A stretch of 64,000 nt of DNA from Trichomonas vaginalis G3 (Eukaryota; Parabasalia; Trichomonadida; Trichomonadidae), in contig NC_067205.1 of NCBI RefSeq assembly GCF_026262505.1, positions 16,678,001 to 16,742,000 on the forward strand, read 5' to 3'. The notes under the pieces were generated by a model. It was not told where the DNA came from. It made no database searches and saw nothing but the letters and a program-made list of their open reading frames with translations. How positions within the stretch are numbered: position 1 is the stretch's first letter; every line of letters begins with the position of its first letter. Positions 2,190 to 25,670 of the stretch are shown piece by piece. A program made the position numbers and the translations under genes.

Positions 2190-2270
2190 AAAAAAAAAAA
2201 AAAAGGTAGTGGGGCCTCCAGGCACTTCGTGCCCTCTAGCCCTGAAGATGTTTAGTATAATGAAGTTTTT
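2190..2270. repeat. Left terminal inverted repeat of Maverick
   Basis: An A-run (2190-2204) is followed by GGTAGTGGGGC, a 13-base hairpin GGCACTTCGTGCC, CCTCTAGCCC, then GAAGATGTTTAGTATAA and GAAGTTTTT. The reverse complement of 25583-25670 matches this with very few substitutions (for example CCTCC versus CTTCC, CCTGA versus CCCGA) and a longer A-run. A translated ORF over this region is an artefact of the repeat. Confidence 0.95.
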
Positions 2271-2282
2271 TTTTTCTTGGGA

Positions 2283-5058: not shown

Positions 5059-6663
5059 ATGTACGCCGCTCAGAATATAACGCCAACAGTTTTGGATGCC
5101 ATGAACGGAAATGTTTCCGAATGGTATAACGAATGCGACAATGCCATTAGAAGGTCAGAAATAGTTCCTGGAACTTACGAATATACAACTGCTGTTTCTT
5201 ATGGAAACGTAGGTGAGTTTGGAGAAGGTTCTTCAACAACAGTAGATATTGCTTGCGACAGGTTTCATATTATTTCTATTGACAACTCATTCTTATACGT
5301 GGAACAAGACATTGAAATAAAACCTTCTGCCAAGTTGTCTGACAAGAAAGGTTGCAATGGAATTTTCTATGTCGGATACCAATATGCTCCAGAAGTTTTC
5401 ATGGGATATAAGATATATTCTAACTCTGACTTAGTTCAAACAGTAACATGGGCAAACTATGAATGGTTCGCTTTGAGAAACTCAGTACAACCACAAGCTA
5501 GAGAACAAACAGACCAGTATGCAACTATTGAGAAAATAAGAAGACTTGACCCTAACGTTCCAGGAGTTTATGTTAACCTTTCTGAACAAACTGCAGCAGC
5601 AGTAACCAAAGTAAAACTGAAACTTAGAGTTCCTTTGTCATCTTTCCTCATCTTCAGGTTTTTAAGATACTTGCCAAACTGGGCAGGAAAAATTTCTATT
5701 GAACTTACTCCAAGCAAAAATAACTTAGTCATTGCACCAACACAAGACCCATTCAGCATTACTATAGCTAGAACTGGTGGAGCCAAGTTCTGTGACTTTT
5801 GCAAAGACAAAGTTGACTTAGACTTTGGTTTCTCAAACTTCAACAATGAAGTAAACTATTATTTCAATGCTGCTGGAACTGCTTGGGACCCAGTTAAGTT
5901 TACATGCGAAAAGTTTGAATGCAAGAGAATAGAAAGCAGACTTGCAGTCTATATGTTGGACCCAGATATTTCAAATGCTTTAGCTGCCAAATATATTGCA
6001 GTTCCACTTATGTTCCCTATACACCAAATATCTGTCAAAGACTTTGCAGGTGAAGTTGGAAACCAAAGTGCTGACCCAGGTGCAAGAACAGATATTGCTT
6101 TAACAACTGCAATGAAACATGCAGATACTATGTTTGTACTGTTCAGACGAACTATAAATGACTATTCTTGTTTCTACAACCCCGGTATTAAATATCATAT
6201 AAACATAGATGGCAAATATTATCCAAGAGAAGAATATTCTACAGTTGAGGATATGAGGTCATACAACTTGACATTAGATGCTATGAACTTTAACAACAAC
6301 TTCACAACAACCATTAACCCTGAAATGCAAAGTTCTATTATGCCATATGTGAAAGTATGGACTCATACAGGAGGTCAAAAAACTCAATATACAAATGGAG
6401 ACCGTTCAAACTTTTGGCTTGGCATTCCATTTGCTGACTCAGAAGACTTTATGGGTGGTATTTCAACTGTTGGTACTGTACAAATACAATATACTGGTGA
6501 CAGAGACGGTCCAGATGAACTGAGAGCAAAGAAGTTTACAAAACCAATAGCACTTTTCACGGAAGATGCTCTTTTGAAGATTCGTTCGATGAAACCTGCT
6601 GGGGCTCCTCAGATTGGCATAACGACAGCTTCCATCGAGCAGATTTTGGCAGCAGGTCAGTAA
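5059..6663 (+). CDS. Probable Maverick major capsid protein (double jelly roll)
   Basis: This is an intact 534-residue protein, within the usual 500-650-residue range for Polinton major capsid proteins. It is rich in beta-prone Phe/Tyr/Thr segments, has no signal peptide or membrane helix, and alternates about 10-residue strands with Asn/Gly/Pro loops across two similar-sized halves. No sequence motif is diagnostic; the call rests on length, composition, excellent reading-frame conservation and order (upstream of the minor capsid and ATPase genes), as established for Polintons/Mavericks. It would assemble as trimers into an icosahedral shell. The ATG at 5059 follows CATATGAA; an upstream in-frame alternative is not seen. 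The 3' end overlaps a convergent minus-strand gene by about 100 bp. Confidence 0.75.
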   Translation: MYAAQNITPTVLDAMNGNVSEWYNECDNAIRRSEIVPGTYEYTTAVSYGNVGEFGEGSSTTVDIACDRFHIISIDNSFLYVEQDIEIKPSAKLSDKKGCNGIFYVGYQYAPEVFMGYKIYSNSDLVQTVTWANYEWFALRNSVQPQAREQTDQYATIEKIRRLDPNVPGVYVNLSEQTAAAVTKVKLKLRVPLSSFLIFRFLRYLPNWAGKISIELTPSKNNLVIAPTQDPFSITIARTGGAKFCDFCKDKVDLDFGFSNFNNEVNYYFNAAGTAWDPVKFTCEKFECKRIESRLAVYMLDPDISNALAAKYIAVPLMFPIHQISVKDFAGEVGNQSADPGARTDIALTTAMKHADTMFVLFRRTINDYSCFYNPGIKYHINIDGKYYPREEYSTVEDMRSYNLTLDAMNFNNNFTTTINPEMQSSIMPYVKVWTHTGGQKTQYTNGDRSNFWLGIPFADSEDFMGGISTVGTVQIQYTGDRDGPDELRAKKFTKPIALFTEDALLKIRSMKPAGAPQIGITTASIEQILAAGQ

Positions 6664-7822: not shown

Positions 7823-8620
7823 ATGGCAGAAGATATAATGGTTTATACTATTACGACTAAAAACCCTGAGTCATATAATTCTATAACAACAAACTTACAA
7901 AGTCCTCAAGGACGATATTGTAAACTAACTTTAAACACAATGACGACTAAAGCCTGTTTTGCTCTTTTGACACCAGAAGACTTTATTGTTGTGAATGGTA
8001 AAAAATACTCCTTTGAAGATACTTACTCAGATATACCACCAACAGGTTTTGTTGACTTATTTAATACTTTAAGTACGGGTGTAACATGTGCTGCAACTAG
8101 AGCAGGTTTCATTATGTTTGGATGTCCGACTGAGTTTACTATAAACAATATGAGCTATAATACAAAACTTATTTCTGGTTTTTACTACCAACAGTTTCCT
8201 ATAACAGGAAAAGGTGTCATACAAGGAATGTCTATTCCATTGACATTAAGCACACCAATCTTATATATTGTTTCAAACTTAGGTTCAAAGTGTTATTCGA
8301 ATGTCGACAGAAACTATTATGACCAAAAGATACTTATGCGTATAAACAATACTTTCTCTGCTGGTTTGCCTATTGTTCATTCGAATGCAGAATTTTCAAC
8401 CTTAGTGAACTCAAACACTTTGGCAAGTATAACGTTGACATTAGTTGACGCAAACTTTGTTCCTGTAAAACTTTTATGTCCTATGTATTTGTCAATGACG
8501 GCAGAAAGTTTCGAATTGGAAGATGCAACTGGTGAAAGTATTGTATTACAAGAACAACTTCAACAACAAATAGCTCAAGAACAACAAATGCAACAAATGC
8601 AACAACAAAGTCAAGAATAA
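7823..8620 (+). CDS. Probable minor capsid / penton protein (single jelly roll)
   Basis: This is an intact 265-residue protein, the size expected of Polinton penton proteins (about 230-300 aa). It is almost entirely beta-prone (Thr/Ser/Val/Phe-rich segments), with about 220 residues of folded domain followed by an acidic and Gln/Met-rich tail made of QQ(I/M)-type repeats. It sits in the morphogenesis block between the capsid gene and the helicase. In Mavericks the minor capsid protein forms the pentons at the icosahedral vertices. The call is from length, composition and order, not from a diagnostic motif. Confidence 0.65.
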   Translation: MAEDIMVYTITTKNPESYNSITTNLQSPQGRYCKLTLNTMTTKACFALLTPEDFIVVNGKKYSFEDTYSDIPPTGFVDLFNTLSTGVTCAATRAGFIMFGCPTEFTINNMSYNTKLISGFYYQQFPITGKGVIQGMSIPLTLSTPILYIVSNLGSKCYSNVDRNYYDQKILMRINNTFSAGLPIVHSNAEFSTLVNSNTLASITLTLVDANFVPVKLLCPMYLSMTAESFELEDATGESIVLQEQLQQQIAQEQQMQQMQQQSQE

Positions 8621-8649: not shown

Positions 8650-9884
8650 ATGTACAGAATAGATGTTTCAGATTTTTATGACTTCCAAGCATTCAGAAAT
8701 ATGTGTCCATTTAGAGACTATAACAAAGCAGTTGAGAATTTGAAACGTTTAGTCATTTATGTTGACTCTGCCCCAGAATGTTATGTCATGAAAGAATGGG
8801 ATGTTGTCTTTAACAAACCAAGAGCAACAATAGTGTCTGAACAAGAATGTAGACAGAAACTTAAGAAAATAAAAGTCGTACAAGTTGGCATGAAGATGTT
8901 AGATGCTTGGGATATCTTATTGTCAAAGTTAGAAGATTTTTCAGTTCGAGGTATAAAGTTTTATACACCTTCTCCAAACTTCTATTCTATCTTCACTGGA
9001 TATAAATACGAACAAGTAGAATGGAAAGAAAATATTATAGAAGCTTGGTTAGACCATGTCAAAGAAATTATATGCAATGGAAACGAAAAGGTTTATGAGT
9101 ATATCTTATGTTGGTTTGCAAACATCTTACAACATCCAAGTGCTAAAAATGAAACTGCTCTCATTATAATTGGAAAACAAGGAACTGGTAAGAACACATT
9201 CTTTACAGATATTTTGTGCAAACTGTTAGAAGGTTATTCGAATCCGAATATGACAAACTTAGAAAACATCTGTGGCAAGTTTAACTCCTCAATAGAGAAT
9301 ATGAAACTTATAGTTTGCAATGAACTTCAAAGTATAGATACAACAAAAGTTTTGAACTCAGATGCTTTGAAGAGTCTTATAACAGACAAAGTTGGAGTTG
9401 TTGAAAGAAAGTATAAAGACCAAAGAGTTTGTGAAAATGTTGCAAACTTCATTATGGTTTCAAACAATGTTGTTCCGATGAAGTTAGAAAGTTTGACAGA
9501 AGATATGTAGTTGTCAGAACGTCAGAAGCTCATATGCAAGATACAGAATATTTTGACGACTTAGCAGAAACTTTGACATCTGACTTTTACAACCACTTGT
9601 TCTCATATTTTATGACATTAGATATTTCTAAGTTCAATCCAAGACAAATTCCACATACCGAAGAGAGACAAACATTGTTAGAAGCAAACAAGAGTGTATA
9701 TGAACTGTTCATAGATGAAACTGACTTTGAGTGTTTAGATGAAAGGTCATTGTACGATTCGTATAAACAATATTGTCAAGAATATGGTTATATGGCAGCT
9801 TCTAAACGTACATTCTTGGCAAATGTCAAAAGTCTTTTAGATGTTCAGAATGGTGTATATACAAAGAAAAATTTTTCTGAGTAA
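8650..9884 (+). pseudogene. SF3 (D5-like) helicase, one frameshift
   Basis: The first frame (8650-9510, 286 aa) contains a Walker A motif IIGKQGTGKNTFF (about residues 172-184), a Walker B-type LIVCNEL and an SF3 motif C FIMVSNN. Together these identify a superfamily 3 helicase of the D5/primase-C-terminal type, which unwinds DNA at replication origins. The reading frame stops at 9508-9510. The second frame is open upstream of its ATG at 9534, carries the expected Arg-rich segment after motif C from about 9495, and continues to 9884 with a helical winged-helix-like C-terminus. A net shift near 9490-9500 therefore breaks one gene of about 411 residues. No archaeo-eukaryotic primase domain is fused at the N-terminus. 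Confidence 0.9.
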
Positions 9885-10358: not shown

Positions 10359-10811
10359 TTACATGTCAAATTTCTTTTTCTCTGGAACTGGTTCAGGTTC
10401 TTTCTTCTCTTCTTCTACTTTCTTTTCTTTCTTTTCTTTCTTCTTCTTTTCTGGTGGAGTTATGTCAAATTTCTCCGAACCATATTTATGTAAAAGTTCT
10501 TTGTCCTTTAATAGCTCTTCTATTCTGTTTTCTATTTCATCTTCAAGAACAGCGCATGTGTCTTCTTTGCATTCTAAGAACTTTTGTTGGACTTCATCTT
10601 TCCAATCGGTGTCATCTCTGTCAACAAGTCTGTCATTGACAAATTTTAAGACTGCTCTGCTTAATGTTTTATGGTTCTTGTCATATTCCCAGAAACAGAA
10701 CTTTAGAACAAATTCACCTTTCTTGTTTACACTATGTAAGATTTTATGGTCGACAGAAGTTTTGCTGTCGAAAAGCTTGTCTCGAATATAGATAGCGAAA
10801 TCGCTAGACAT
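10359..10811 (-). CDS. Unknown Maverick protein with Lys/Glu tail, 150 aa
   Basis: Starts at 10811, divergent from the packaging ATPase. Residues 1-105 look folded (alpha/beta with several Trp/Phe/Cys), then a Pro/Lys/Glu low-complexity tail of about 40 residues (KKKKEKKEKK type) ends KKKFDM. The plus-strand read-through of this region is a poly-Ser/Phe shadow. No family recognised. Confidence 0.75.
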   Translation of the reverse strand: MSSDFAIYIRDKLFDSKTSVDHKILHSVNKKGEFVLKFCFWEYDKNHKTLSRAVLKFVNDRLVDRDDTDWKDEVQQKFLECKEDTCAVLEDEIENRIEELLKDKELLHKYGSEKFDITPPEKKKKEKKEKKVEEEKKEPEPVPEKKKFDM

Positions 10812-10847
10812 TTTCTAAAAGATAAAAATTTTAATTTTTCTAAAAAT
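10812..10847. promoter_or_regulatory. 36-bp divergent promoter region
   Basis: The two ATGs at 10811 (minus) and 10848 (plus) are separated only by A/T-rich sequence with TTTTCTAAAAGATAAAAATT and TTTTTCTAAAAAT. The (T)TCTAAAA motif occurs once on each side, like the TCTAGATAAAA/TCTAAGTAAAA leaders elsewhere in the element. Confidence 0.45.
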
Positions 10848-11723
10848 ATGTTAGAAAAAAAGTTTGCTGACATTGACAAGAAATTTGAGAATGTTTTAAA
10901 CAAGAACAAGAGGAAGTTAGAAAATGCTCAGATAAAACCTATACATGACAAGTTCTTATTTGCTCAGAATGGTATAACAGGTCTAATTGCACCACCTGGG
11001 TCGGGTAAGACTTTCACTTATCTTAAAATGGCTGCACAACAACAAGAACTAGATGAGAAGAACCCATTCTATGAGTTAGTAGTCATTTGTAGTACTTCTG
11101 GTCAATTTGACCAAACCGTCAATTCGTTCAAAGATATTATAAAGAAGTCTAAGTTAGTATGTATAAAAGACTCTGAGTTGTTAGATTGGATAAAGAAGTA
11201 CCAAAGAAGAGTTTTGAAGTATAATGCTATAAATGAGTATATAAATTCTAAGTTTAAAGACCCAAATGAGGAAATGCAGAGAATATTAGACAAACACCAC
11301 TTCAGAAACAAACAGAAAGAGATAGAATACATTTCGAAGAAATTGCAATCTTACGATTGGAAGACTTACCCTCATAGGTGTCTTCTTATTTTAGATGATT
11401 TCGCCTCTCATCCTTTGTTAAAGAATAGAGAACAAGATATGTGTCGAATTCTTAAGAAGCTCAGACACTTTAACATCTCAGTTGTCATTTGTGTACAGAC
11501 AGCAAAGAGTTTAAGTAAGGATGTAAAGAGAATACTTACTGACATTGTACTTTTCCCCGGATTGTCCGAAGACGATTTCATGGAACTTATGAAAGAGTCC
11601 ATGGCAGGTAAGTTTGACAGATATGAACTATGGGAGAAGTACAAAGTCATACAAGACCCTCATACTTCTTTCAGAATTCATATCTACGCAAACAAAGTTC
11701 AAATTGTAAAAAGTCAAGCTTGA
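10848..11723 (+). CDS. A32/FtsK-HerA-type genome-packaging ATPase
   Basis: This is an intact 291-residue protein. The ATG at 10848 is chosen because codons upstream to 10746 run antisense into the divergent gene. Walker A is APPGSGKT (about residues 48-55), Walker B is CLLILDDFA (about 178-186), and a sensor-type VVICVQTAKS follows about 35 residues later. Length and motif spacing fit the Polinton/virophage/poxvirus A32 packaging ATPase, which pumps the genome into preformed capsids. It closes the plus-strand morphogenesis/replication block and converges with the KilA-N gene at 11740. Confidence 0.92.
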   Translation: MLEKKFADIDKKFENVLNKNKRKLENAQIKPIHDKFLFAQNGITGLIAPPGSGKTFTYLKMAAQQQELDEKNPFYELVVICSTSGQFDQTVNSFKDIIKKSKLVCIKDSELLDWIKKYQRRVLKYNAINEYINSKFKDPNEEMQRILDKHHFRNKQKEIEYISKKLQSYDWKTYPHRCLLILDDFASHPLLKNREQDMCRILKKLRHFNISVVICVQTAKSLSKDVKRILTDIVLFPGLSEDDFMELMKESMAGKFDRYELWEKYKVIQDPHTSFRIHIYANKVQIVKSQA

Positions 11724-13352: not shown

Positions 13353-13359
13353 GTATAAA

Positions 13360-13400: not shown

Positions 13401-13430
13401 CTCTTCGTAAAAAAATAACAGTTATATAAT

Positions 13431-13821: not shown

Positions 13822-13879
13822 AAATAATGTTTATGTTAGCATGTTAGATCTAACCTCTTTTCTAACCTCTTTTCTACCC

Positions 13880-14010: not shown

Positions 14011-14019
14011 AATGACCAA

Positions 14020-14190
14020 AAATATATTTTATGTTAGAATGTTAGATCTAACACGTTTTCTAACACGTTTTCTAACATGGTCTAAAACACACAAAACTCA
14101 TGAATTTTCATACGGAATTCAGCAAAAATAAAGTTTATGTTAGAATGTTAGATCTAACACGTTTTCTAACACGTTTTCTAACATAACTAT
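14020..14190. repeat. TTAGATCTAA-containing repeats (orientation 1)
   Basis: Two copies of ATGTTAGAATGTTAGATCTA followed by ACACGTTTTCTAACACGTTT and TCTAACAT lie here. They are reverse complements of the core of the 96-bp repeats at 15473-15910, so the gene at 14191-15129 lies between inverted copies of this repeat family. Confidence 0.8.
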
Positions 14191-15129
14191 TTACAAGCGT
14201 TTTACATGGTATATGTTGCGATGGTTCATGACTCTAAACAGTTTTGTAGCTTCTATTTCTTCGCTGAGGATATCGAATGTTTTAACTATGCCGAAAGTTT
14301 CTTTATACTTCTTTTTGACGTCAGACAGAAGGAAATCTTCTGCTGTTGGATAGTTTTTGTTCAGAAATGTCAACATGTCCATTTTATTTTCTGCTGGTTT
14401 TTCTGCTTCTTTCTTTAAGTCAGCATAGTCGTTTCTCATACGTTCTATCTCTTTGACGGAGTAGTTATATTTCCTCATTGCTGCTTTACATTTTGAACAT
14501 TGCGGGTTCATTTTTGCGTTATACATTGAAACCTTACCTGCTAAAACAACTAAAGCGTCAATGGTTTTCTTTAACTCAAAAGCTGCTGGTTTTATCTGTT
14601 TGTTCCATACTTTGCCTCTTTTATCTTTATCTCTTATCTGCCAAACACATTCAGCAACTAACGAAACAAAGTTGTCGTAGGTCTTAAATTCTTCAGATTT
14701 ATATATGTCAGAAACATTCTTATATACCATGTCGCAATCTTTGTCCATAACCTTATGGTTGCAATGAAATCCTAGAAACTCATAGTTTACCTTTCGTATG
14801 AACTTCTTTATTTCTACTGAGTCAGTTGCTTTGACTTCTATTTCATCGAATTCAGGAATAGTGAGCTTTTGCTGCTGAATTTCAGGCAATTTGGGTAAAT
14901 GGTCAATAATGTCCTGCATTTCATAAAGATACTGTTCATTTGTTTCATCTTTCGCACTACAGTCTAAATTACATGTTAAAAGTTCTTGCTTTATCTTCTG
15001 GATTTCTGTTTCGAAAGTATATGAAGAAGGAATGAAGCTTTTCATCTCTACTAACATAGATGTTGGATTCATGACTAACGAGTTTGGTGCTGTAGTTGTT
15101 TGAAGTGTTGTTGTGCCGATTGTTGACAT
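14191..15129 (-). CDS. Unknown Maverick protein between inverted repeats, 312 aa
   Basis: The ATG at 15129 (MSTIGTTT) is preferred; the 25 upstream codons are an A/T-rich leader. Residues 1-60 are Thr/Ser-rich, 60-130 helical, and residues about 125-230 look like a compact helical domain with Trp and Cys (FLGFHCNHKVMD). A CxxC pair (CSKCKAAMRKY) near residue 235 could bind zinc if paired with others, and a Glu/Lys helical region ends the protein. Its upstream sequence resembles the leader of the KilA-N genes, so it may share regulation. No family is recognised. The frame is intact although both sides are repeat-riddled. Confidence 0.75.
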   Translation of the reverse strand: MSTIGTTTLQTTTAPNSLVMNPTSMLVEMKSFIPSSYTFETEIQKIKQELLTCNLDCSAKDETNEQYLYEMQDIIDHLPKLPEIQQQKLTIPEFDEIEVKATDSVEIKKFIRKVNYEFLGFHCNHKVMDKDCDMVYKNVSDIYKSEEFKTYDNFVSLVAECVWQIRDKDKRGKVWNKQIKPAAFELKKTIDALVVLAGKVSMYNAKMNPQCSKCKAAMRKYNYSVKEIERMRNDYADLKKEAEKPAENKMDMLTFLNKNYPTAEDFLLSDVKKKYKETFGIVKTFDILSEEIEATKLFRVMNHRNIYHVKRL

Positions 15130-15299
15130 TTTTATTTTTTTATACAAAATAAAAAAAATAAAAAAAATAAAACTAACTTTATTTTTTATTTCGGGAAAAT
15201 TCATGAAAATTCAAGAGGTGAAAAAAGAGGTGAAAAAACAGGTGAGATCGCACTTCTTCACCTAAACTTTATTTTTGTCTGATTTACGCTCATTACGAT

Positions 15300-15465
15300 G
15301 AAGAAGTCTTGACAAAACATTTACGTTCATGTTTGACAAAACATTTACGAAGAAGTCTTGACAAATCATTTACGAAGAAGTCTTGACAAAACATTTACGA
15401 AGAAGTCTTGACAAATCATTTACGAAGAAGTCTTGACAAAACATTTACGAAGAAGTCTTGAAAAT
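15300..15465. repeat. 25-bp tandem repeat array (orientation 2)
   Basis: TCTTGACAAAACATTTACGA plus AGAAG recurs at 15356, 15381, 15406, 15431 and 15456 with an exact 25-bp period; alternate units have AAATCATTT in place of AAACATTT, which indicates a 50-bp higher-order unit. Reverse complement of 13880-14010. Confidence 0.9.
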
Positions 15466-15472
15466 TCAAGAG

Positions 15473-15910
15473 GTTAGAAAACGTGTTAGAAAACAGGTGA
15501 GATCTAACATTCTAACATAAACATTATTTTTGGTGTAAATTTCATGATTTTCGAGAGTTTTAGACCATGTTAGAAAACGTGTTAGAAAACAGGTGAGATC
15601 TAACATTCTAACATAAACATTATTTTTGGTGTAAATTTCATGATTTTCGAGAGTTTTAGACCATGTTAGAAAACGTGTTAGAAAACAGGTGAGATCTAAC
15701 ATTCTAACATAAACATTATTTTTGGTGTAAATTTCATGATTTTCGAGAGTTTTAGACCATGTTAGAAAACGTGTTAGAAAACAGGTGAGATCTACATTCT
15801 AACATAAACATTATTTTTGGTGTAAATTTCATGATTTTCGAGAGTTTTAGACCATGTTAGAAAACGTGTTAGAAAACGTGTTAGATCTAACATTCTAACA
15901 TAAACTTTAT
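15473..15910. repeat. Five 96-bp tandem repeats
   Basis: Units start at GTTAGAAAACGTGTTAGAAA at 15473, 15569, 15665, 15761 and 15856, period 96 (95 for the fourth). Each contains GAGATCTAACATTCTAACAT and ends in GAGTTTTAGACCAT. Because 96 is three times 32, the minus strand stays open across several units and yields a 32-residue repeat (MLDLTCFLTRFLTWSKTLEN and so on). This is probably an accidental ORF since the flanking units break it. The last unit runs into a KilA-N-like gene fragment. Confidence 0.9.
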
Positions 15911-15911
15911 T

Positions 15912-16110
15912 TTTGCTGAATTCAGCAACAAAATGAACGAGGTCAGGATGTATGTAAATACCTTTGAATTCATTCATAACACCCTTAGTAAGCTCATAAA
16001 ATGCTTGTTTTGAGGTCGAGCCACTTTTGGCTCCACCGTATTCTTTCAACCAAAACTCAAGAATTTCCTGCATGAATTTTGTATAAAAAGCAACCGTCGG
16101 AATTCAGACT
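15912..16110 (-). pseudogene. KilA-N-like gene fragment
   Basis: The minus strand from about 16110 to 15915 encodes a helical segment followed by FKGIYIHPDLVHFVAEFS, which resembles the KilA-N motif G-x-Y-(V/I)-H-P-x-L-(V). No upstream start or DNA-binding N-terminus remains, an in-frame TGA is upstream of the first Met (16073), and downstream it fuses directly to the 96-bp repeats. A truncated family member, diverged from the ones at 12.3 and 13.7 kb. Confidence 0.6.
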
Positions 16111-16124
16111 GTTGCTATATTCTT

Positions 16125-16255
16125 CACAAAACATTTACGCTCATTACGATGAAGAAGTCTTGACAAAACATGTACGATGAAGTCTTGACAAAACATTTAC
16201 GTTCATGTTTGACAAAACATTTACGAAGAAGTCATGACAAAACATTTACCCGACA
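16125..16255. repeat. 25-bp repeat units, irregular
   Basis: Copies of CATTACGATGAAGAAGTCTT and GACAAAACATTTACG occur with variable spacing, the same family as at 15300-15465. Confidence 0.75.
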
Positions 16256-16266
16256 TTCTCGTCAAA

Positions 16267-16470
16267 TACAAAAAAAATGACACTTTTTCATTAGATAACT
16301 GTTATTTTTTGACGAAGTGAACATTGACACTTCGTCAAAAAAATCCCTGAAATCATATCTTACATACAAAAAAATACAAAAAAATGACACTTTTTCATTA
16401 GATAACTGTTATTTTTTGACGAAGTGAACATTGACACTTCGTCAAAAAAATCCCTGAAATCATATCTAAC
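16267..16470. repeat. About 103-bp direct repeat with a 15-bp-stem hairpin, two copies
   Basis: TACAAAAAAATGACACTTTT, then TCATTAGATAACTGTTATTT and a hairpin TTTTGACGAAGTG-AACATTGA-CACTTCGTCAAAA followed by TCCCTGAAATCATATC occur twice in tandem (start about 16267 and 16370). Half of the hairpin unit occurs in reverse orientation at 13360-13400. Confidence 0.88.
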
Positions 16471-16619
16471 ATACAAAATAAAAAAATAAAACTAACTTTA
16501 TTTTTTCTATCTTAAGGAAATTCATGAAAATTCAAGAGGTGAAAAAAAGAGGTGAAAAAACAGGTGAGATCGCACCACTTCACCTAAACATTATTTTTGG
16601 GTCCTTTACACTCATTACG

Positions 16620-16770
16620 ATGAAATCATGACAAAGCATGTACGTTCATGTTTGACAAAACATTTACGAAGAAGTCATGACAAAACATTTACGAAGAAGT
16701 CATGACAAAACATTTACGAAGAAGTCATGACAAAACATTTACGAAGAAGTCATGACAAAACATTCATGAA
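16620..16770. repeat. 25-bp tandem repeat array with CATGAC variant
   Basis: AAGAAGTCATGACAAAACAT plus TTACG repeats with period 25 about five times; the CATGAC form replaces the CTTGAC of the other arrays, so each array has been homogenised separately. Confidence 0.88.
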
Positions 16771-16809
16771 AATTCATGAAAATTCAAGAGGGTAGAAAAG
16801 AGGTTAGAT

Positions 16810-17157
16810 CTAACCTTCTACCCTAAACTTTATTTTTTGGTCCGGGAACAACTTTCTCTCAATTGGAGCTGTAGCATACTCTTTGCGTAAGCGGTTCAGA
16901 CCTTCCTCGAACTCTTGGTCTCTCTTGGATTGAGATTGAGATTGGAATTGCTGGGGTGGAGCTTGCTGGAACATCCAAGGGTTGGGGAAGTAAGGCATAG
17001 GCTGAGGAGGGTAGTTCGGGAAGCCTTGTGGTGGGTAGTAACCTTGAGGTGGAAATTGGTAGTAAATCGGAGGTACTTGCTGGAACTGAGGTGCAGGGGC
17101 TGGTGCTTTAGGTTCCTCTGGTTTGGGAATGGACTGGGTTGGTGGTACGTCGGACAT
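16810..17157 (-). CDS. Pro/Gln-rich protein, GC-richer than its surroundings
   Basis: The start is at 17157 (MSDVPP). The protein has 115 residues: a Pro/Gln/Tyr/Phe-rich region (PPQGYYPPQGFPNYPPQPMP type) over residues 10-80, then a charged helix with RDQEFEEGLNRLRKEYA. The last codons run into Maverick repeat sequence (16810-16845), so the original C-terminus may be lost. G/C at third positions is clearly higher than in neighbouring Maverick genes. It is divergent from the gene at 17601, and both begin at the ends of the same 22-bp minisatellite. The Pro-rich type fits a virion or scaffold protein, but no family is recognised. Confidence 0.6.
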   Translation of the reverse strand: MSDVPPTQSIPKPEEPKAPAPAPQFQQVPPIYYQFPPQGYYPPQGFPNYPPQPMPYFPNPWMFQQAPPQQFQSQSQSKRDQEFEEGLNRLRKEYATAPIERKLFPDQKIKFRVEG

Positions 17158-17600
17158 TGTCTTGAAACAGTACAAATATTGTTCTGAAGCAGTGCAAGTC
17201 TTGTTCTGAAGCAGTGCAAGTATTGTTCTGAAGCAGTGCAAGTATTGTTCTGAAAAAGTACAAGTATTGTTCTGAAGCAGTGCAAGTCTTGTTCTGAAGC
17301 AGTGCAAGTATTGTTCTGAAAAAGTACAAGTATTGTTCTGAAAAAGTACAAGTATTGTTCTGAAACAGAAAATTTTTCTCACAAATTGAGAGCTTTTACG
17401 GGAAATTTGTTCTGAAAAAGTACAAGTATTGTTCTGAAAAAGTGCAAGTATTGTTCTGAAGCAGTGCAAGTATTGTTCTGAAAAAGTACAAGTATTGTTC
17501 TGAAGCAGTGCAAGTCTTGTTCTGAAAAAGTACAAGTATTGTTCTGAAGCAGTGCAAGTATTGTTCTGAAAAAGTACAAGTATTGTTCTGAAGCAGTGCA
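17158..17600. repeat. 22-bp minisatellite between divergent genes
   Basis: About 19 units of TGTTCTGAAGCAGTGCAAGT plus AT (variants AAAAAGTACAAG and CAAGTCT) with a strict 22-bp period, interrupted once at about 17360-17410 by AGAAAATTTTTCTCACAAAT and following sequence. The array runs to within a few bases of ATG on both sides (17157 minus, 17601 plus). Three units equal 66 bp, so long minus-strand ORFs through it are repeat artefacts. Confidence 0.93.
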
Positions 17601-17966
17601 ATGGACAACATCGAGCCATTAGATGAGGCAGTTTACCTAATTTAAATTAACGACTGCGTAAAAGACTACTTGCGCAAGGTCATGAAGCCCAAGGTCAAGT
17701 TCACCACTATTTCTGGAAGGGCTGCCTTGAATCTCGAGATTTCGACTGGAATTCCAATTGACGTACCAGACGGGACAGCCTACGACGACATAAAGGAGAT
17801 GAAGAAAGAAGCTCTTCTCAAGTTCTTTGCAAAGCGCCCATGGATACAACTTCCAAACAGAGAGAGTCCAATTCCACGAATTATACAAATTCTCAGAGCA
17901 CTGTTCCACTTCTCTGGTCAACCATTCTACATAACCTGTGAAGGCGACATCCAACCAGTTCAGTAA
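17601..17966 (+). pseudogene. Unknown GC-richer protein with one in-frame stop, about 121 codons
   Basis: ATG at 17601 directly abuts the last minisatellite unit. Fourteen codons later an in-frame TAA (17643-17645) interrupts the frame, which otherwise stays open to 17966. Downstream residues form an alpha/beta protein with KPKVKFTTISGRAALNLE near residue 35, an acidic helix and a C-terminal helix followed by a beta segment. Codons favour C or G at the third position (GAC, AAG, ATC, TTC), unlike neighbours and like highly expressed trichomonad genes. Without the stop the product would be about 121 residues. Function unknown. Confidence 0.6.
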
Positions 17967-18101
17967 ACCTTAACGTTTAACTTCACTTTTTTATGTTTTT
18001 TGTGAAAGTTTTAAAATAAATTGTTTTCATGAGTTTTAGACCATGTTAGAAATGAGGTTAGAAAACGTGTTAGATCTAACATGCTACCCTAAAAGTATTT
18101 T
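17967..18101. other. Spacer with one TTAGATCTAA repeat copy
   Basis: Contains TAGACCATGTTAGAAATGAG and GTTAGAAAACGTGTTAGATC, a diverged single unit of the 96-bp repeat family, which marks the right limit of the repeat-rich centre. Confidence 0.7.
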
Positions 18102-18960
18102 TCAATACTTTTTCAGCACTTTTCCGTAGTTATATATGAAAGACAATTCGAGATAAAAGTCATAGTACAATGGAATAATATGTTGCACACCATTTGTTGT
18201 GAACCAAACTTGAAAGTCAGAGAAACTGTTACTAGGTGGTTCGTAGAATTTAGAAGCAAAGTCATAAAAGTCCTTACCAATACATAGAAAACTATTGTTG
18301 CTTGAACTGAAACTTGCATGACACATAACATTTTGAGGGTCAAACACGTTTTTATAAACTGTCAAATCTGCTGGTGGAAGTATAAATTTAAATGGACCAT
18401 CTGGTGGTAATGGTTCGTTCTGGTTTAGTAACCGAAGAAATTGTGCCCAAGAACGTTTGTCTACTTTCCAATATAAAAACTCTGTATCTCTTGGAGGGTT
18501 AATTTCAATCTTTTGAAATGAAACGGTGGAGTTCATCTTGTCATATTCTAGTTTCAGATAGTATGTTCCATTTAGTAAAGAGTCGTATTTTTCTTGAAAT
18601 TCCCAATAATATTTGTTCATTTGAGTTTGAAAGTCATTTAGAGTTTTCTCAAGACTTTCGTCTGAACGAACTGTAAAGATTCTCATTTCGTCAAATTTGT
18701 CTATTAGACCATCAGAACCTTTATACTGCCCATGAAATATACTGCGAAATAAATGCGTTAGTTCTATTTGAAAACAAAACTCTTCTAAATCCTATTGCCT
18801 TTGCATCTGAAGGACTTTGAAGCCAACGAATTGGATAGTCAAACCTGTATGTTCGGGATGAAATTTCTTCATCTGAAATAGTCCTACCAGCATTTGTAAA
18901 GATATAGTCTAACGGTTTTGTATCTACTACTTTTGTTCTTTGTTTTTCAACCTGAAGCAT
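18102..18960 (-). pseudogene. Conserved Maverick protein, paralogue 1, one frameshift
   Basis: Two frames (18721-18960 and 18102-18686) together align end to end with the gene at 22956-23806. Shared landmarks are the N-terminal YRFDYP(I/L)RWL and AIGFRR, a central Phe-rich region, NVFD, HASFS followed by NSFLC, and a C-terminal SDFQVWFTT then LELSFIYNY. A frameshift lies about 18690-18750; the missing middle is readable in the third frame. Intact length would be about 285 residues. Beta-rich, no membrane helix or known motif. The two paralogues face each other across the integrase and fibre genes. A virion role is plausible but unproven. Confidence 0.8.
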
Positions 18961-20195: not shown

Positions 20196-20561
20196 TTATT
20201 GTTTACCCACTTGTGCATGGTTATATCCTCTGTTAAAGAATCTTTCACCTTGGTCCATATAGTGTCCTGCTTGGTTATAGTAGTCATTTGCTTTGTTATA
20301 ATAGTTTCCTGCTTGTCTTCCTACATTGTCCATCCATCCTTGAACTTTTCCTCTTGTTTCAGGATTTGGAATAAGATTTGTTGCATCTCGTGCTACATCC
20401 CAACCTTTCTGTACAGTTTGTATAATAGGTTGTGCTTTCTCTTTCAGTATACCTAATGTACTCAAAATCTTCCTTCCAACTCCAAATACACCTCTGGCTA
20501 TTGTTCCCACTGCGGGCAAAAATCTGGATGCAACTCCTGCTAATGCGCCAAATAAACCCAT
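20196..20561 (-). CDS. Adenovirus pVI-like amphipathic virion protein, 121 aa
   Basis: Starts MGLFGALAGVASRFLPAVGT. Gly2 makes N-myristoylation possible, and residues 2-40 form a Gly/Ala-rich amphipathic helix typical of membrane-lytic minor virion proteins (adenovirus pVI, Polinton PX). A second helix, a Pro turn and a Tyr/Asn/Gly-rich tail with repeated YN/YY units follow. The protein likely sits under the capsid and disrupts membranes at entry (inference). A second frame continues from the C-terminus (20196) to the TGA that overlaps the next ATG at 20143 and encodes NNNQPQPSNVGN and a VKFFTEMK end, so a one-base frameshift near 20200 probably shortened it. Confidence 0.65.
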   Translation of the reverse strand: MGLFGALAGVASRFLPAVGTIARGVFGVGRKILSTLGILKEKAQPIIQTVQKGWDVARDATNLIPNPETRGKVQGWMDNVGRQAGNYYNKANDYYNQAGHYMDQGERFFNRGYNHAQVGKQ

Positions 20562-20579: not shown

Positions 20580-21533
20580 TGACGAATCCAAACAAGGACC
20601 CCTATGTTTCTAAAGCGACAAAGAAAGCACTCATGATAAAAATCTTTAGTTCAACACCAAATGCTTGGTTTATGGATATCTTGGAAAACATTCGAGAGTT
20701 AGAACAGATGGACCACCATACTGGTTAATATTTGTTGGTCAAAACACAAGATACTGTGAAGCCATACCATTATGGTCCAAAAATATTTTAGATGTGAAAA
20801 CTGCTTTGACAATATTCGTTGACAAATACCATCCAACAAAACTGACATCTGACTGTGAAAGTTCTTTCAAATCAGATGATGTAAAAAACTATCTGCGTTC
20901 AAAAAATGTAAACCAATATTTCATTGTCGACCAAAACCATTCTGCTCTTGGTGTCATTGACGGTTGTATAAAATGTTAAGAGACTTAAACCAACCACAAG
21001 GTGGTGAAGCAAATGAAATGTCATATGACGACAAATATAGACACTTCTCCATGGCAAAGATGAGACAAGTTTTAAATATTTACAATAGCCGTAAACAAAA
21101 AGGTTTGGGAAACCACTCCCCGAAGAAATGAAAAACAACCCTGACTTAGAGAAAGACTATATATTTAATAATTTAGTCAAAAGAGACAAACAAGAAAGAA
21201 TGCCGGGCTTCAAACTTCAGAAAGGTGACAAAGTAAAAATAGAAATACCCAAACGCGACCCATATGAAAATACTATTGACTATGACAACAATGGGAACCC
21301 GACAGGTACTCACATTCGTGTTCGTAAAAATAGAAGAAAGTATACAAGAGAATATTATGAAGTTTTAGGCAACATGGCAAATGTACAGACTGCAAGCAGA
21401 AGATAAAACTACTATTGTCAGACCTCGTTTCAAACTTGTCAAAGTTCAAGGTGGTATACTTTCAAAGACAGTTCCTAACAAATATAAGACAACTCCTGAC
21501 GAATATGCTAAAGAAGTTGAAAATGACGACTAA
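20580..21533 (+). pseudogene. Maverick RVE/DDE integrase, multiple frameshifts
   Basis: ATG at 20580 opens a frame with NAWFMDIL (first catalytic Asp) that stops near 20730. The next frame, from about 20715 to 20979, has the core PPYWLIFVGQNTRYCEA, the second Asp in LTSDCESSF, and about 35 residues later HSALGVIDGCIK, where an Asp stands at the usual position of the catalytic Glu. A third frame covers LRDLNQP to the TGA near 21129. The next frame (21128-21406) begins inside that region and encodes a basic SH3-like tail (GDKVKIEIPK), and a fifth gives the C-terminus ending at 21533. Four frameshifts make it non-functional. It would have inserted the element. Its stop overlaps that of the fibre gene by two to three bases. 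Confidence 0.92.
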
Positions 21534-22937
21534 GCATTTCTATACCATGCGTAAACTGTCATGTAAGGTGGCATGTAGTCTTTACTTTGTCCCGTTGTTT
21601 GCGTATATCCTGAAACGCGTGTGTATGGTTTCCTCCTCCCTCAGTGTTACTCCAGAAACAATTTATAGCAAACTTAACGTTGTCTTTAATCATATCCTTT
21701 ACCTTTTGTCATTGCTGACCAATCCCAATATCTATGCTTATGCCAACCTGCTTGAGATGTACTTAAATCTATGTAGTGACTGTGTGCAGGTAAATTTTCA
21801 CCTGAAATCGTTTTACTTCCACCTGTTTCCTTTGAAGAGTTTGCACAATACAAAAACCTGTCGACTATTTGAGTCCAAGTTCCAAAACCCAGAACTGTTT
21901 CTGGTCTGGTAGAGTTCATTGACGTATAAATAGAGCCTATAGGATATAATGTTTGAAGTATTTCTGTCTTTAATGTTTGAAGCTCTGTTTTGTCTGCTTT
22001 CTTGTCATATAAATCTTGAGCAGTGAATTTAATATTATGTTCATCCTTCATGACATAAACATCTTTACATCTAATGTTTTTCATCGTCGTTATGTCGTCA
22101 TCCGATGTTAAACCTTGTGGAAAGTTAGGAGGTTTACAATATAATGCATCCCCACCAGTTTCTTCAACCGTTCCTTCAATACTTTCTATAGCAACAGTTG
22201 TAAAACTTGTATGTGTATGAGTCTTATTTGCTTTCTTCTCTAACTCATCGTTAACATAAGTTTTATCTGCTTTAAGGTCTAAACATCCTGAAACCCATCC
22301 TGTATCGGCTTTAGTTTTTAAAAATCTTCGATGTCCATTCATGGTACCAGTCAACCCTTTCTTTCATTTCGTTATCTTTTTCATCCACATATTCCTTATC
22401 TGCTTTCTTCTCTAACTTACTAGCCACATATCCCTTATCTGCTTTATTTTCAAGGCTAACGTTTAAGTCTGTTATTTCAGATATAGAATGTGTATGAGTC
22501 TTTTTAGAATATTCGTTTTCAGCTCTTGTCACTTCACTTGACATTTTATTGTCAACATATGTTTTGTCTGCTAGTTCAGGATGAGTATGTTCTTTTGTTG
22601 CATAAGCATTGTTAGCTCTTTCTTCTTCTTTTGCTATTGCATCGTCTACATATTCTTTGTCAGCTTTGTTGTCAACATCTGCTTTCAAAAGAAGTTCATT
22701 TATAGGTTTCTCGTTTAAAGTTCCTTTTGTTGGATTTATACAGACAGTATGGTTCTTATTGTCTTGAAACAGAAACTCATCTGTCATTGGGTTTAATGTC
22801 AGTTTTAAGTTTCCTTCTTTCAATGACTCAGATATCTTAGAATAGTTTGAAAAGTTTGTTGTGTTCTTATTTAGAGCTTGCATAATGAGTTGTCGGTTGT
22901 GTTGTATTTCTCTTATGGAAGCAATATCTTTCGACAT
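21530..22937 (-). pseudogene. Phage tail-fibre-like receptor-binding protein with collar domain, frameshifts
   Basis: ATG at 22937. The N-terminal frame (to 22311) has a short globular start and then repeated (N/E)KADKxYV units, the triple-helix/beta-helix stalk pattern of phage tail fibres. The second frame (22354-21686) continues the stalk and leads into YPIGSIYTSMNST, GFGTWTQIVDRFLY and LPAHSHYIDL, diagnostic of the phage tail-collar domain. Beyond the frame end at 21686, a third frame reads to the TAG at 21530-21532 with PPYMTVYAWYRNA, the standard collar C-terminus. The joints are single-base shifts (about 22320 in an A/T run and about 21600). Full length would be about 468 residues. A trimeric adhesin on the virion vertex is a likely role. 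Confidence 0.88.
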
Positions 22938-22955: not shown

Positions 22956-23806
22956 ATGCTTTCAATAGAAAAAGAAAATTCAAGAGTTGCTACAACTAAA
23001 CCATTAGATGAACTTTTTACTAATGTCGGTCAAAAGTTTGAGACAGAGACCGTAAAGCATGAAGGCTATCGTTTTGACTACCCATTAAGATGGCTAAGAG
23101 ACCCATCTGTCACAAAAGCTATTGGCTTTCGTAGAATGAAGTTCATTTCAGAAGCCATACATGGTTTCCCATTTACGGTCGGTTTTGAAGTTCGATACTA
23201 TAACAAAGAAAAACGTATGTATGAGAAATTTGAACAGGGAAAACTTTTACAAGTTAGTTTGCTTGTAAACTTAGAAACAACTCTTCAAGCTTTTCAAGAA
23301 AAAATAAACGACATCTATATCGAATATGCAAAACAGTATAACATTGACGAGGGAGAGTACCATCTCGATATTATTTATGACAGGAAAAATGCAACTGTTA
23401 AAATCAATAGAATAGAAGACCTTGGAGAAAACGTTTATATTTCTACAAAATATAACAACTTGGCATGGTATAGATTTATGAGGATGTTAAATCAGCCTGC
23501 AGCATATCCAGTACACCCAGACTTTTATGAAGTCGAAAACCCTAATGGAACATATGAAAATGTTTTCGACCAAGATGCTATTATTGTTCATGCTTCATTT
23601 TCTGGCGCCCAAAACTCTTTCTTATGCTTGGCAAATGACTTTTACGAAAACCTACAAAGTTAATACGAACCACCAAGTGGAAGTATTTCAGACTTTCAAG
23701 TATGGTTTACTACAGATGGAAGAAAAAGAATAATTCCATTATACCATGCGTTTTACTTAGAACTTAGTTTCATATACAACTACTATCGAACGGTAAAAAA
23801 TAATTT
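22956..23806 (+). pseudogene. Conserved Maverick protein, paralogue 2, one premature stop
   Basis: A 235-codon frame ends at TAA 23661-23663; the same frame stays open after it and continues the homology with paralogue 1 (YEPPS, SDFQVWFTTDG, LELSFIYNYY) to about 23800. So a single nonsense change truncates the last 50 residues. The N-terminal half (TTKPLDELFTN, YRFDYPLRWL) is the better conserved. The 3' end converges directly on the minus-strand gene at 23808. Confidence 0.8.
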
Positions 23807-23807
23807 T

Positions 23808-24050
23808 TTAATACGGTTGAGGTGTTGGATTTGGTTGCCAACTAGACTGTGGTGCAGGTTCAGGCTGTTGTATAACAGGAGCTTGCTCTTCTGGTTCAGG
23901 GTCTTTAGGTATAATACCAACAAACTGACCTACCCTTTTACCAATATTTTTGACTCCGTTCCAAATTCCTCTTCCTACGGTTTTTATTCCATTCCATATA
24001 CCTCTTCCAACTCTTCTGAAGAAGTTTCCAATACTACTGAAGAAACCCAT
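23808..24050 (-). CDS. Second pVI-like amphipathic protein, 80 aa
   Basis: Starts MGFFSSIGNFFRRVGRGIWN. Gly2 with Ser5/Ser6 fits N-myristoylation, and residues 3-45 form a basic amphipathic helix with a duplicated GRGIWNG(I/V)K unit. A Pro/Gln/Glu tail follows. This resembles membrane-active minor virion proteins of adenoviruses and Polintons. It is smaller than, and not obviously a copy of, the one at 20196. Role in membrane penetration is inference. Confidence 0.65.
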   Translation of the reverse strand: MGFFSSIGNFFRRVGRGIWNGIKTVGRGIWNGVKNIGKRVGQFVGIIPKDPEPEEQAPVIQQPEPAPQSSWQPNPTPQPY

Positions 24051-24068
24051 TTTACTATATGTAAAAAT

Positions 24069-24454: not shown

Positions 24455-24586
24455 TTACGAGTACATATACTGAACATTTGCAGGTATTGGTTCATCTTCA
24501 TATTCTCTGTACTTTTCTGCCACGTCAAATAAATAAATGACACAATGGAAAAAACCTAAAACAAGTAGTCCTATTTCAAACCACAT
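24455..24586 (-). CDS. Small single-span membrane protein, 43 aa
   Basis: ATG at 24586 (after GTAAGTAA) overlaps the 3' end of the methyltransferase gene by 16 bp and opens 43 codons to TAA at 24455. The product begins MWFEIGLLVLGFFHCVIYLF, one hydrophobic helix near the N-terminus, followed by an acidic Tyr-rich tail (DVAEKYREYEDEPIP). It fills the only gap between two genes and has sensible codons. Small hydrophobic virion or membrane protein is likely. Confidence 0.6.
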   Translation of the reverse strand: MWFEIGLLVLGFFHCVIYLFDVAEKYREYEDEPIPANVQYMYS

Positions 24587-25389
24587 TTACTTACTAATAA
24601 AATTTCTTTGTTATGACACTTTCTCCGGTTTATAGGACCTCTCTCATATTCTATCTTGTCATATCTAAACTCATAGTCATGTATGTCCTCTAACCATCTC
24701 ATAACGGTTTCCAAACCACTTTTATCGGATGTAAAGTAAAAGCATGGATGGTTATGTATAACGTCTAAAGTTTCTAAAGAGTCTCTCAAAGTCCAGTCGA
24801 CTTGGTATTGAAAATCCCATGTGTTATAGAACGGCGGGTCCACTATAAAGAAAACATTTTCCTTGTCTTTATATTTTTCATACAACTCTGTCCAATGACA
24901 TCTCACAAACTCTATACCCTCAATATATTTTTCTATGTCCTCTTTGAAAACATTTGTATAGTTAAGATATAAAACTTTTGACATAAGTGTTTCAATGTCA
25001 TGAACTCTTATAGAACCACTATATAATAGTCTAGCAGATATACTATCCCAGTCTATATATTCTGCTTTTTTCAAAACCTCTCTCACAATATTTTTCTTAT
25101 CTAATGGTATACGTTCCATCTTACCTATAGGTATCTTTTCTTTTAACTCTTTCAATATATTGTTTGTGTCTGGAATATGTTTGAGACGGTCCATATAGTT
25201 GTCGAAGTCATTGCATATAATCTTTGAGTCTGGGAATATTGTATGGCACAAATGGGATATATAGAAACTTCCACCGAACAAATCTACAAATGTTAGACCA
25301 TTCGGTAGTTTCTTAAGTTCTCTCAATATAATATCTTTACATCTACTCTTATTTCCAAAGAACGGTAACGGAGGTTTTGTAAAATTCAT
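24571..25389 (-). CDS. D12-class DNA adenine N6-methyltransferase (Dam-like)
   Basis: This is an intact 272-residue protein. Near the N-terminus PPLPFFGNKSR matches the PxxKxGGK-type D12 motif, FVDLFGGSFYIS is the SAM-binding motif I, and FFIVDPPFYN is the catalytic DPP(Y/F) motif IV. The order and length match D12/Dam methyltransferases, which methylate adenine at N6. Mavericks of trichomonads are known to carry such enzymes. The product could mark element DNA or affect host chromatin. It is one of the few enzymes here without any frame break. Divergent from the small basic ORF at 25487. Confidence 0.92.
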   Translation of the reverse strand: MNFTKPPLPFFGNKSRCKDIILRELKKLPNGLTFVDLFGGSFYISHLCHTIFPDSKIICNDFDNYMDRLKHIPDTNNILKELKEKIPIGKMERIPLDKKNIVREVLKKAEYIDWDSISARLLYSGSIRVHDIETLMSKVLYLNYTNVFKEDIEKYIEGIEFVRCHWTELYEKYKDKENVFFIVDPPFYNTWDFQYQVDWTLRDSLETLDVIHNHPCFYFTSDKSGLETVMRWLEDIHDYEFRYDKIEYERGPINRRKCHNKEILLVSKCGLK

Positions 25390-25486: not shown

Positions 25487-25618
25487 ATGTTTTCGACCCA
25501 GAAGAAGGCTTCTTCCCAGAAGCAATGGAGGAAGAAGAAGAGTCCTCCGAATTCACACCAGAAGACTAACAATTTTCCGAATAAAAACTTCATTTATACT
25601 AAACATCTTCGGGGCTAG
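25487..25618 (+). CDS. Small basic ORF running into the right TIR, 43 aa
   Basis: ATG at 25487 follows ACACATTATATA. The 43 codons encode a Lys/Arg/Gln/Ser-rich peptide (MFSTQKKASSQKQWRKKKSP) and end at the TAG formed by CTAGAGGG inside the terminal repeat. AAG-biased codons and the basic nature suggest a DNA-condensing or core peptide. An alternative overlapping frame (ending at 25568) is highly acidic and has no start, so it is less likely. Confidence 0.45.
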   Translation: MFSTQKKASSQKQWRKKKSPPNSHQKTNNFPNKNFIYTKHLRG

Positions 25619-25670
25619 AGGGCACGAAGTGCCTGGAAGCCCCACTACCTTTTTTTTTTTTTTTTTTTTT
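25583..25670. repeat. Right terminal inverted repeat of Maverick
   Basis: Reverse complement of the left TIR: AAAAACTTCATTTATACTAA, ACATCTTCGGGGCTAGAGGG, CACGAAGTGCCTGGAAGCCC and CACTACC, then a T-run of about 21. The T-run is longer than the left A-run by about seven bases. Confidence 0.95.

What the first reader, a model, noticed from the sequence alone, without database searches (positions are those of the whole stretch)
21530..22937. Maverick encodes a phage-type tail fibre with a collar domain
The minus-strand gene has a stalk of repeated KADKxYV units and ends in a phage collar domain: YPIGSIYTSMNST, LPAHSHY and the terminal PPYMTVYAWYRNA. The match to phage receptor-binding fibres is direct. 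Its presence in a eukaryotic capsid-encoding transposon suggests virions with vertex fibres and a gene acquired from a phage, possibly from bacteria living with or eaten by the host.
Basis: partly seen in the sequence, partly recalled or inferred. Interest (0 to 1): 0.85.

Follow-up and report, generated by a model that had tools for sequence, protein, structure and literature searches.

The report
Phage-like tail fibre in Trichomonas Maverick
A virus-like element repeated through the genome of the parasite Trichomonas vaginalis carries a gene resembling the receptor-gripping tail fibre of bacterial viruses; its stalk and tip vary more between copies than the genes beside it, which hints that the element has behaved as an infectious virus and not only as a jumping gene.

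Summary
On the minus strand at 22937-21533 lies a phage-type fibre gene: N-terminal part, stalk of KADK/HTH repeats (Pfam PTR, 8.6e-10) and C-terminal tip (Pfam Gp10_C, 6.9e-18 and 7.5e-5 on separate pieces). The tip family is Gp10_C (T4 gp10 type), not PF07484 "collar". This copy is broken into three frame pieces. The host is Trichomonas vaginalis. The 23.5-kb element has inverted terminal repeats, a double-jelly-roll capsid protein, A32-type ATPase, D5-type helicase and an integrase fragment; PolB was not found. At least 150 genomic Gp10_C copies pass the cut-off; 11 of 20 sampled fibre copies are open. T. vaginalis tips form one clade (100/100) among phage tips (at most 41% identical over the tip): one old capture is likely, no donor is found. 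Against the window copy the fibre start is kept in 20 of 20 copies, one stalk part in 10 and the tip in 17; the tip insert has 40 nonsynonymous to 5 synonymous informative sites, with caveats. Phage-like fibres in such viruses, including PTR fibres in T. vaginalis, are published; the Gp10_C tip, module swapping and tip variation were not found in eight paper searches.

The parts
22311..22937 (-). fibre piece 1: N-terminal (attachment) part and first stalk repeats
   Evidence: ORF; PTR PF12789 8.6e-10; 22700-22937 is matched full length at median 98.5% in 20 of 20 other copies
21686..22354 (-). fibre piece 2 (another frame): stalk repeats, then first half of the Gp10_C tip
   Evidence: ORF; Gp10_C PF21939 6.9e-18, profile 1-85; T4 gp10 0.0017
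21533..21640 (-). fibre piece 3 (after a second frame break): end of the tip, PPYMTVYAWYRNA
   Evidence: stop-to-stop frame; Gp10_C 7.5e-5, profile 107-138, under the cut-off alone
22956..23663 (+). DUF7777 gene, head-to-head with the fibre, constant neighbour
   Evidence: PF24992 3.7e-66; beside the fibre in 30 of 30 loci
20650..20976 (+). integrase (rve) core fragment in a broken frame, downstream of the fibre
   Evidence: PF00665 4.3e-6, 27.4 bits, under the cut-off of 32.6
21095..21406 (+). frame between the rve core and the fibre end; perhaps the integrase C-terminal part (inference)
   Evidence: ORF 21128-21406; no family match; kept in 20 of 20 other copies
2190..2273 (+). left terminal inverted repeat
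   Evidence: 40 scored full-length genomic matches of 1157 candidates for 2204-2290
25580..25664 (-). right terminal inverted repeat
   Evidence: 91% complementary to the left
5059..6663 (+). major capsid protein (double jelly roll)
7823..8620 (+). candidate minor capsid (penton) protein
   Evidence: inference from size and position only; no family over its cut-off
8650..9884 (+). D5-like/SF3 helicase in two pieces (8650-9510, 9534-9884)
   Evidence: PF19263 4.9e-23 and Pox_D5 2.1e-5
10746..11723 (+). A32-type packaging ATPase
   Evidence: Pox_A32 9e-7, over its cut-off

Best explanation
The gene encodes, in its open copies, the receptor-binding fibre of the virion that this Maverick/PLV-type element makes. 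Shown: N-terminal part, PTR stalk of variable length, phage-type Gp10_C tip; fixed place in the element; capsid gene in the same element. Inferred: it trimerises like phage fibres, the conserved N-terminus holds the capsid (probably at the vertex), and the histidine-rich insert of the tip touches the receptor. The tip was captured once, long ago, from a tailed phage, directly or through another eukaryotic virus; the nearest sampled tips are on IMG/VR phage contigs of unknown host and on Bacilli and Tenericutes genome contigs. Since then the copies have swapped stalk and, less often, tip modules and varied the tip insert, as phages do when they change host range. The copy in this window is a frame-broken relic.
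For: Profile hits on separate pieces and with database relatives. Synteny: 30 of 30 loci found by fibre have fibre plus DUF7777, and 29 of 30 also the genes on the other side; 30 of 30 loci found by DUF7777, one of them the window itself, have the fibre N-terminus. Scored TIR copies include pairs in inverted orientation 24-25 kb apart, one pair enclosing a DUF7777 copy. Capsid fold, ATPase. 11 of 20 copies with one open frame, 391-630 codons from stop to stop. Module swapping: fibre start full length in 20 of 20, stalk part A 12, stalk part B 10, tip 17, frame 21128-21406 20 of 20; at least three tip types; four gametes in 1154 of 2016 site pairs. More synonymous change than neutral in N-terminus, first tip block and neighbours, and 40:5 nonsynonymous:synonymous in the tip insert. 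T. vaginalis tips one clade at 100/100 within phage tips; among the listed phage relatives many are annotated antireceptor, receptor-binding protein or tail fibre.
Against: This copy is broken, as are 9 of 20 others. The monomer model is poor (pLDDT 46.6), so trimer and vertex placement are untested. Excess of nonsynonymous change over neutrality is weak: P 0.029 or 0.007 with bounds chosen after looking, 0.094 with bounds set by the phage alignment; the 14 neighbour-sampled tips show no contrast (P 0.39). Block variation is not confined to the fibre: 20600-21100 is full length in 15 of 20. Only 2 of 20 copies in that sample have a wholly different tip; a third is 89% identical. The tree is unrooted, the bootstrap had not settled, and no virophage or giant-virus tips were put in it. 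Some phage relatives are labelled minor head protein, capsid and scaffold protein or hypothetical. No PolB found here. No expression or particle data.
Confidence: 0.8

Rival explanations
1. The fibre still binds bacteria. Virions would stick to bacteria that trichomonads eat and enter by phagocytosis (hitchhiking), as proposed for Dishui Lake virophage 2.
For: Tips of phages and genome contigs of Bacillota are among the relatives (15 of 20 genome loci by title; Lactobacillus delbrueckii phages), and the small group next to the T. vaginalis clade holds a Bacilli and a Tenericutes contig with three IMG/VR contigs of unknown host. Published precedent with in vitro binding and a phage-like collar tail: PMC12724248 (abstract, section list and passages seen).
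Against: No binding data; tips are at most 41% identical to sampled phage tips over the tip (up to 47% over 80 residues) and sit on a long stem, so specificity has probably changed.
Confidence: 0.15
2. The fibre is a capsid decoration or assembly part with no receptor role; tip variation is relaxed constraint.
For: The excess over neutral expectation is not significant with pre-set bounds (P 0.094).
Against: Insert and conserved blocks differ within one domain (Fisher 2.4e-5; 6.5e-4 with pre-set bounds); many copies keep open frames; many phage relatives in the listed rows are annotated as receptor-binding or tail proteins.
Confidence: 0.15
3. The genes are host-domesticated adhesins of the parasite and not virion parts.
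For: Very many copies in the genome of an adhering parasite.
Against: The 60 loci examined lie in the element's gene block, 9 of 20 with longer flanks are interrupted, and no family match pointed to a secreted or membrane protein.
Confidence: 0.04
4. Chance low-complexity similarity or contamination by phage DNA.
For: Repetitive stalk.
Against: Two Pfam families over their cut-offs, shuffle control, many copies in fixed context, most on contigs of 20-40 Mb.
Confidence: 0.01

Closest known systems
Phage-like fibre proteins of polinton-like viruses, incl. T. vaginalis PLVs with PTR and collagen (PMC12220804)
   Same: same host and element class, same PTR stalk repeats, proposed cell-attachment role
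   Different: that paper reports PTR fused to single collagen-like domains (n = 20 PLVs of T. vaginalis); the words gp10 and collar do not occur in its main text, and the passages seen do not speak of module swapping or tip variation
Virophage collar-domain tail proteins (DSLV2, PMC12724248; Organic Lake virophage OLV18/OLV19, PMC3671162)
   Same: small virus of the same broad capsid type with phage-derived collar-type tail protein; the 2013 table notes regions of OLV19 similar to a T. vaginalis phage protein
   Different: PF07484 collar and three consecutive genes in DSLV2; here one gene with Gp10_C tip and PTR stalk, and no PF07484 match
T4 gp10 C-terminal domain and antireceptors of Lactobacillus delbrueckii phages (Ld3, c5, LL-Ku)
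   Same: Gp10_C tip with YPxGSIY, GFGTW, TGG, PxHxH, HxH and PPYxxVYxWxR blocks (consensus and rows, which holds a T4-like gp10 and two L. delbrueckii phages)
   Different: T4 gp10 is a baseplate protein of a tailed phage; identity to listed phage tips is about 24-42%

Membership tests
Gp10_C tip (PF21939) | profile match over the curated cut-off | tested here: met
   66.4 bits against 27 for piece 2; piece 3 alone 24.1 bits; all scored genomic copies listed (150, of 4413 candidates) are over the cut-off
PTR phage tail repeat (PF12789) | profile match over the curated cut-off | tested here: met
   39 bits against 27
Phage Tail Collar (PF07484) | profile match | tested here: not met
   no match in the whole genome, while 4 of 14 control genomes ring; not listed
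Trimeric phage fibre | intertwined homotrimer | not testable with these tools
   only monomers can be folded; model at pLDDT 46.6, Foldseek's best match T4 gp10 E 1e-3 but rmsd 16
Maverick/Polinton | terminal inverted repeats | tested here: met
   84-85 bp at 2190-2273 and 25580-25664, repeated in the genome
Maverick/Polinton | double-jelly-roll major capsid protein | tested here: met
Maverick/Polinton | A32/FtsK-type packaging ATPase | tested here: met
   Pox_A32 9e-7
Maverick/Polinton | retroviral-type (rve) integrase | tested here: inconclusive
   core fragment PF00665 at 4.3e-6, 27.4 bits under the cut-off 32.6, broken frame
Maverick/Polinton | protein-primed DNA polymerase B | tested here: not met
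   no PolB match among 39 distinct ORFs and frames of the element scanned besides the three fibre pieces; other short or antisense frames were not scanned, and the genome-wide PF03175 search did not complete. So this is filed as a Maverick-like/PLV-type element, not as a complete Maverick
Maverick/Polinton | cysteine protease | tested here: inconclusive
   no match among the same 39 frames, many of which match no family

The most novel reading that the evidence does not exclude
T. vaginalis Maverick-type elements are, or were until recently, infectious viruses whose fibre tip came from a tailed phage, possibly of Bacillota; copies inside one genome act as a library of stalk and tip modules that recombine and whose tip inserts are selected for change, and the virions may ride on bacteria that trichomonads engulf.
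Probability: 0.2. Interest if true: 0.85.

Novelty: new variant of a known kind. Interest (0 to 1): 0.6.

Why it matters
About a third of the T. vaginalis genome is such elements (PMC10120064, passages seen), and whether they are transposons or viruses was long argued; that paper reported their capsid gene in 2023. An attachment fibre whose stalk and tip vary while the flanking genes hardly do is what one expects of something that leaves cells and meets receptors, and it gives a concrete target (particles, receptor, bound cell) to test. It also adds to the virophages another case of a tailed-phage receptor-binding module in a eukaryotic virus.

Tried and rejected
Rejected: chance repeat similarity; PF07484 membership; overlap with an antisense or alternative coding frame as a cause of the tip pattern (no other frame open across the tip in any of 41 tips); contamination.

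Led nowhere: viral-contig scans with the fibre alignment A1 and the capsid alignment A2 confirmed no relative; alignment A3 was too diverse to scan with; the third protein search listed only T. vaginalis in its best 120 of 4469; none of the 14 non-fibre window proteins used as queries, nor fibre piece 1, had a match at E <= 0.01 in L095-L194, where fibre piece 2 matched 99 of 100 loci. The first tree (14 T. vaginalis and 12 phage rows) lost two phage rows to a slicing slip of mine. The second holds 12 hand-picked T. vaginalis tips; left out before it were five named phage tips of the first (L084, L086, L088, L092, L093), six of the 20 genome loci (L186, L188, L191-L194) and every IMG/VR or genome locus whose tip did not end in W.R or was outside 105-190 residues; 111 rows were then thinned to 84 at 70% identity. 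NCBIfam scans of six frames gave one match, under its cut-off; PDB sequence searches of the methylase-like and rve frames gave none. The Foldseek search of the fibre monomer is weak because the model is poor.

The comparison is cut by 1.5-kb flanks and includes the window itself; one search repeats it with longer stretches on 20 of the other 29 loci. In one search (36 open fibres, pairwise) the nonsynonymous to synonymous ratio was 0.33 for the N-terminus, 0.54 for the stalk, 0.22 for the first 60 tip columns and 1.61 for the rest.

Full report
WHERE IT IS. The fibre region is on the minus strand, 22937 down to 21533. It is not one frame but three pieces: 22311-22937, 21686-22354 and 21533-21640.

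WHAT IT IS. Each piece was searched alone. Piece 1 matches the phage tail repeat PTR (PF12789, 8.6e-10, over its cut-off). Piece 2 matches Gp10_C, the C-terminal domain of T4 baseplate protein gp10 (PF21939, 6.9e-18, profile 1-85 of 139); piece 3 matches the end of the same profile (7.5e-5, 107-138, under the cut-off alone). PHROGs names tail proteins for piece 2. The best solved structure is T4 gp10 (0.0017; 1e-5 with a profile of database relatives); that profile also touches the tip of T4 gp37, not significantly (0.081). PF07484, the collar model proper, has no match in the genome. KA[DN][KTV] occurs eight times in pieces 1 and 2 against a mean of 0.11 in shuffles.

COPIES AND CONTEXT. Searching the genome with a database relative gave 267 matches, some of them two parts of one gene, from 7837 first-look candidates of which 107 were scored; with the Gp10_C profile the 150 scored copies passed the cut-off, from 4413 candidates. 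In 30 of 30 loci picked by fibre the head-to-head DUF7777 gene is present, and in 29 of 30 the genes on the other side, the thirtieth (L007) having a capsid gene there. In 30 of 30 loci picked by DUF7777, the window among them, the fibre N-terminus is present. In 20 of these taken with longer flanks, 11 have one open frame to the end, 391-630 codons from stop to stop; 9 are interrupted. The 20 are those whose DUF7777 is most like the window's, so the share of open copies need not hold for the genome. There are two N-terminal types among the database proteins and at least three tip types (167, 10 and 5 of 214 proteins, 28 cut short, 4 without the tip start).

HOW IT VARIES. Against the window copy, the fibre start is matched full length in 20 of 20 copies (median 98.5% identity), stalk part A in 12, stalk part B in 10, the tip in 17, and the frame at 21128-21406 in 20. 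Of the three tips that miss the mark two are of another type and one is 89% identical. The stretch 20600-21100 is full length in 15 of 20, so the fibre is not the only variable stretch. DUF7777 is at a median of 99.3% over 30 loci. So stalks, and sometimes tips, are exchanged as blocks behind a constant start. Among 41 distinct open tips of the commonest type, informative sites split 12 synonymous to 6 nonsynonymous in codons 1-58, and 5 to 40 in codons 59-118 (Fisher 2.4e-5). Controls in the same loci: DUF7777 29 to 37, fibre N-terminus 14 to 18, two small neighbours 12 to 7 and 6 to 0, with a neutral synonymous share near 0.24. The bounds 59-118 were chosen after looking at 12-codon windows (pN/pS 2.0, codon bootstrap 0.97-7.3). 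With bounds set by the phage alignment the contrast stands (P 6.5e-4) but the excess over neutrality does not reach significance (P 0.094), and the 14 tips sampled by neighbour alone show no contrast (P 0.39). In 124 distinct database tips mean column entropy is 0.09 in the first block and 0.45 in the insert. Four-gamete pairs, 1154 of 2016, show that the variants have been reshuffled or have arisen repeatedly. I take this as strong evidence for a variable insert in a conserved frame, and as suggestive evidence for diversifying selection.

ORIGIN. tblastn with T. vaginalis fibres finds 135 and 278 phage records, all under 60% identity; among the 40 and 50 rows shown, names include antireceptor, receptor-binding protein, tail fibre and baseplate protein, but also minor head protein, capsid and scaffold protein, structural and hypothetical protein. 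In an 84-row tree (12 T. vaginalis, 72 others) the T. vaginalis tips are one clade at 100/100 on a stem of 1.91; next to it is IMG/VR locus L096 (89/66), then two IMG/VR loci and a Bacilli and a Tenericutes contig (81/92). PHROGs identifies L096 and L099 as tailed phages by tail genes. The tree is unrooted, its bootstrap had not settled, and no virophage or giant-virus tips were put in it, so capture through another eukaryotic virus is open.

LIKELY MECHANISM. In phages such proteins are trimers with the N-terminus in the particle and the C-terminal domain, with its histidine-rich insert, at the receptor (knowledge of T4 fibres, recalled). The same order here, the conserved N-terminus, the variable-length stalk and the variable insert fit a virion attachment fibre. 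Trimerisation, vertex position and receptor are inferred; the monomer model is too poor to judge (pLDDT 46.6).

WHAT IS KNOWN. PMC12220804 (passages seen) has a section on phage-like fibres of PLVs and reports PTR with collagen-like domains in 20 T. vaginalis PLVs. PMC3671162 (passages) lists collar-domain proteins OLV18 and OLV19 in Organic Lake virophage and a T. vaginalis similarity for OLV19. PMC12724248 (abstract, section list and passages) reports collar tail proteins in virophages that bind Synechococcus and proposes entry by bacterivory. Database names already call T. vaginalis proteins of this family tail fibre or Baseplate structural protein. I found no paper that describes the Gp10_C tip, module exchange or tip variation in these elements in searches of open-licence papers; subscription papers, including the original Maverick and Polinton reports, were not seen.

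VERDICT.

Noticed in passing
3044-4905 and 5059-6663: Pfam DUF4106 (PF13388) matches the repeat-rich gene before the capsid gene, while the double-jelly-roll fold belongs to the next gene, which has no Pfam match though NCBI calls partial relatives P0122 and P0123 'DUF4106 family'. The published statement that DUF4106 is the capsid protein may rest on this naming.
   Followed up: partly
20199-20561 (-) and 23811-24068 (-): Two small proteins begin with glycine-rich, amphipathic-looking stretches (MGLFGALAGVASRF..., MGFFSSIGNFFRRVGRGIWNGI...), reminiscent of membrane-active internal capsid proteins (recalled); no confident family match.
   Followed up: no
24571-25389 (-): ORF with a DPPFYN motif (recalled as typical of adenine DNA methylases) but no Pfam, NCBIfam or PDB sequence match.
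   Followed up: partly
13300-18100: Dense block of 22-, 25- and 96-bp direct repeats and large inverted repeats in the middle of the element, with several KilA-N fragments around it.
   Followed up: no
1-1366 and 53730-55097: Direct repeats 53.7 kb apart, outside the element; matched stretches are 96-100% identical.
   Followed up: no
18105-18960 (-): Second, broken DUF7777 gene inside the element (PF24992 6.8e-20 on 18105-18686), besides the intact one at 22956-23663.
   Followed up: no
L007: In this copy the fibre lies next to a capsid gene (51% identical to the window's) and not the genes found there in the other 29 loci, so related elements differ in gene order.
   Followed up: no
P0008, P0104, P0112: A second type of fibre N-terminus (MIKQQQPQQLKAQ...) carries similar stalks and tips, so different capsid anchors seem to share one pool of tips.
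   Followed up: partly
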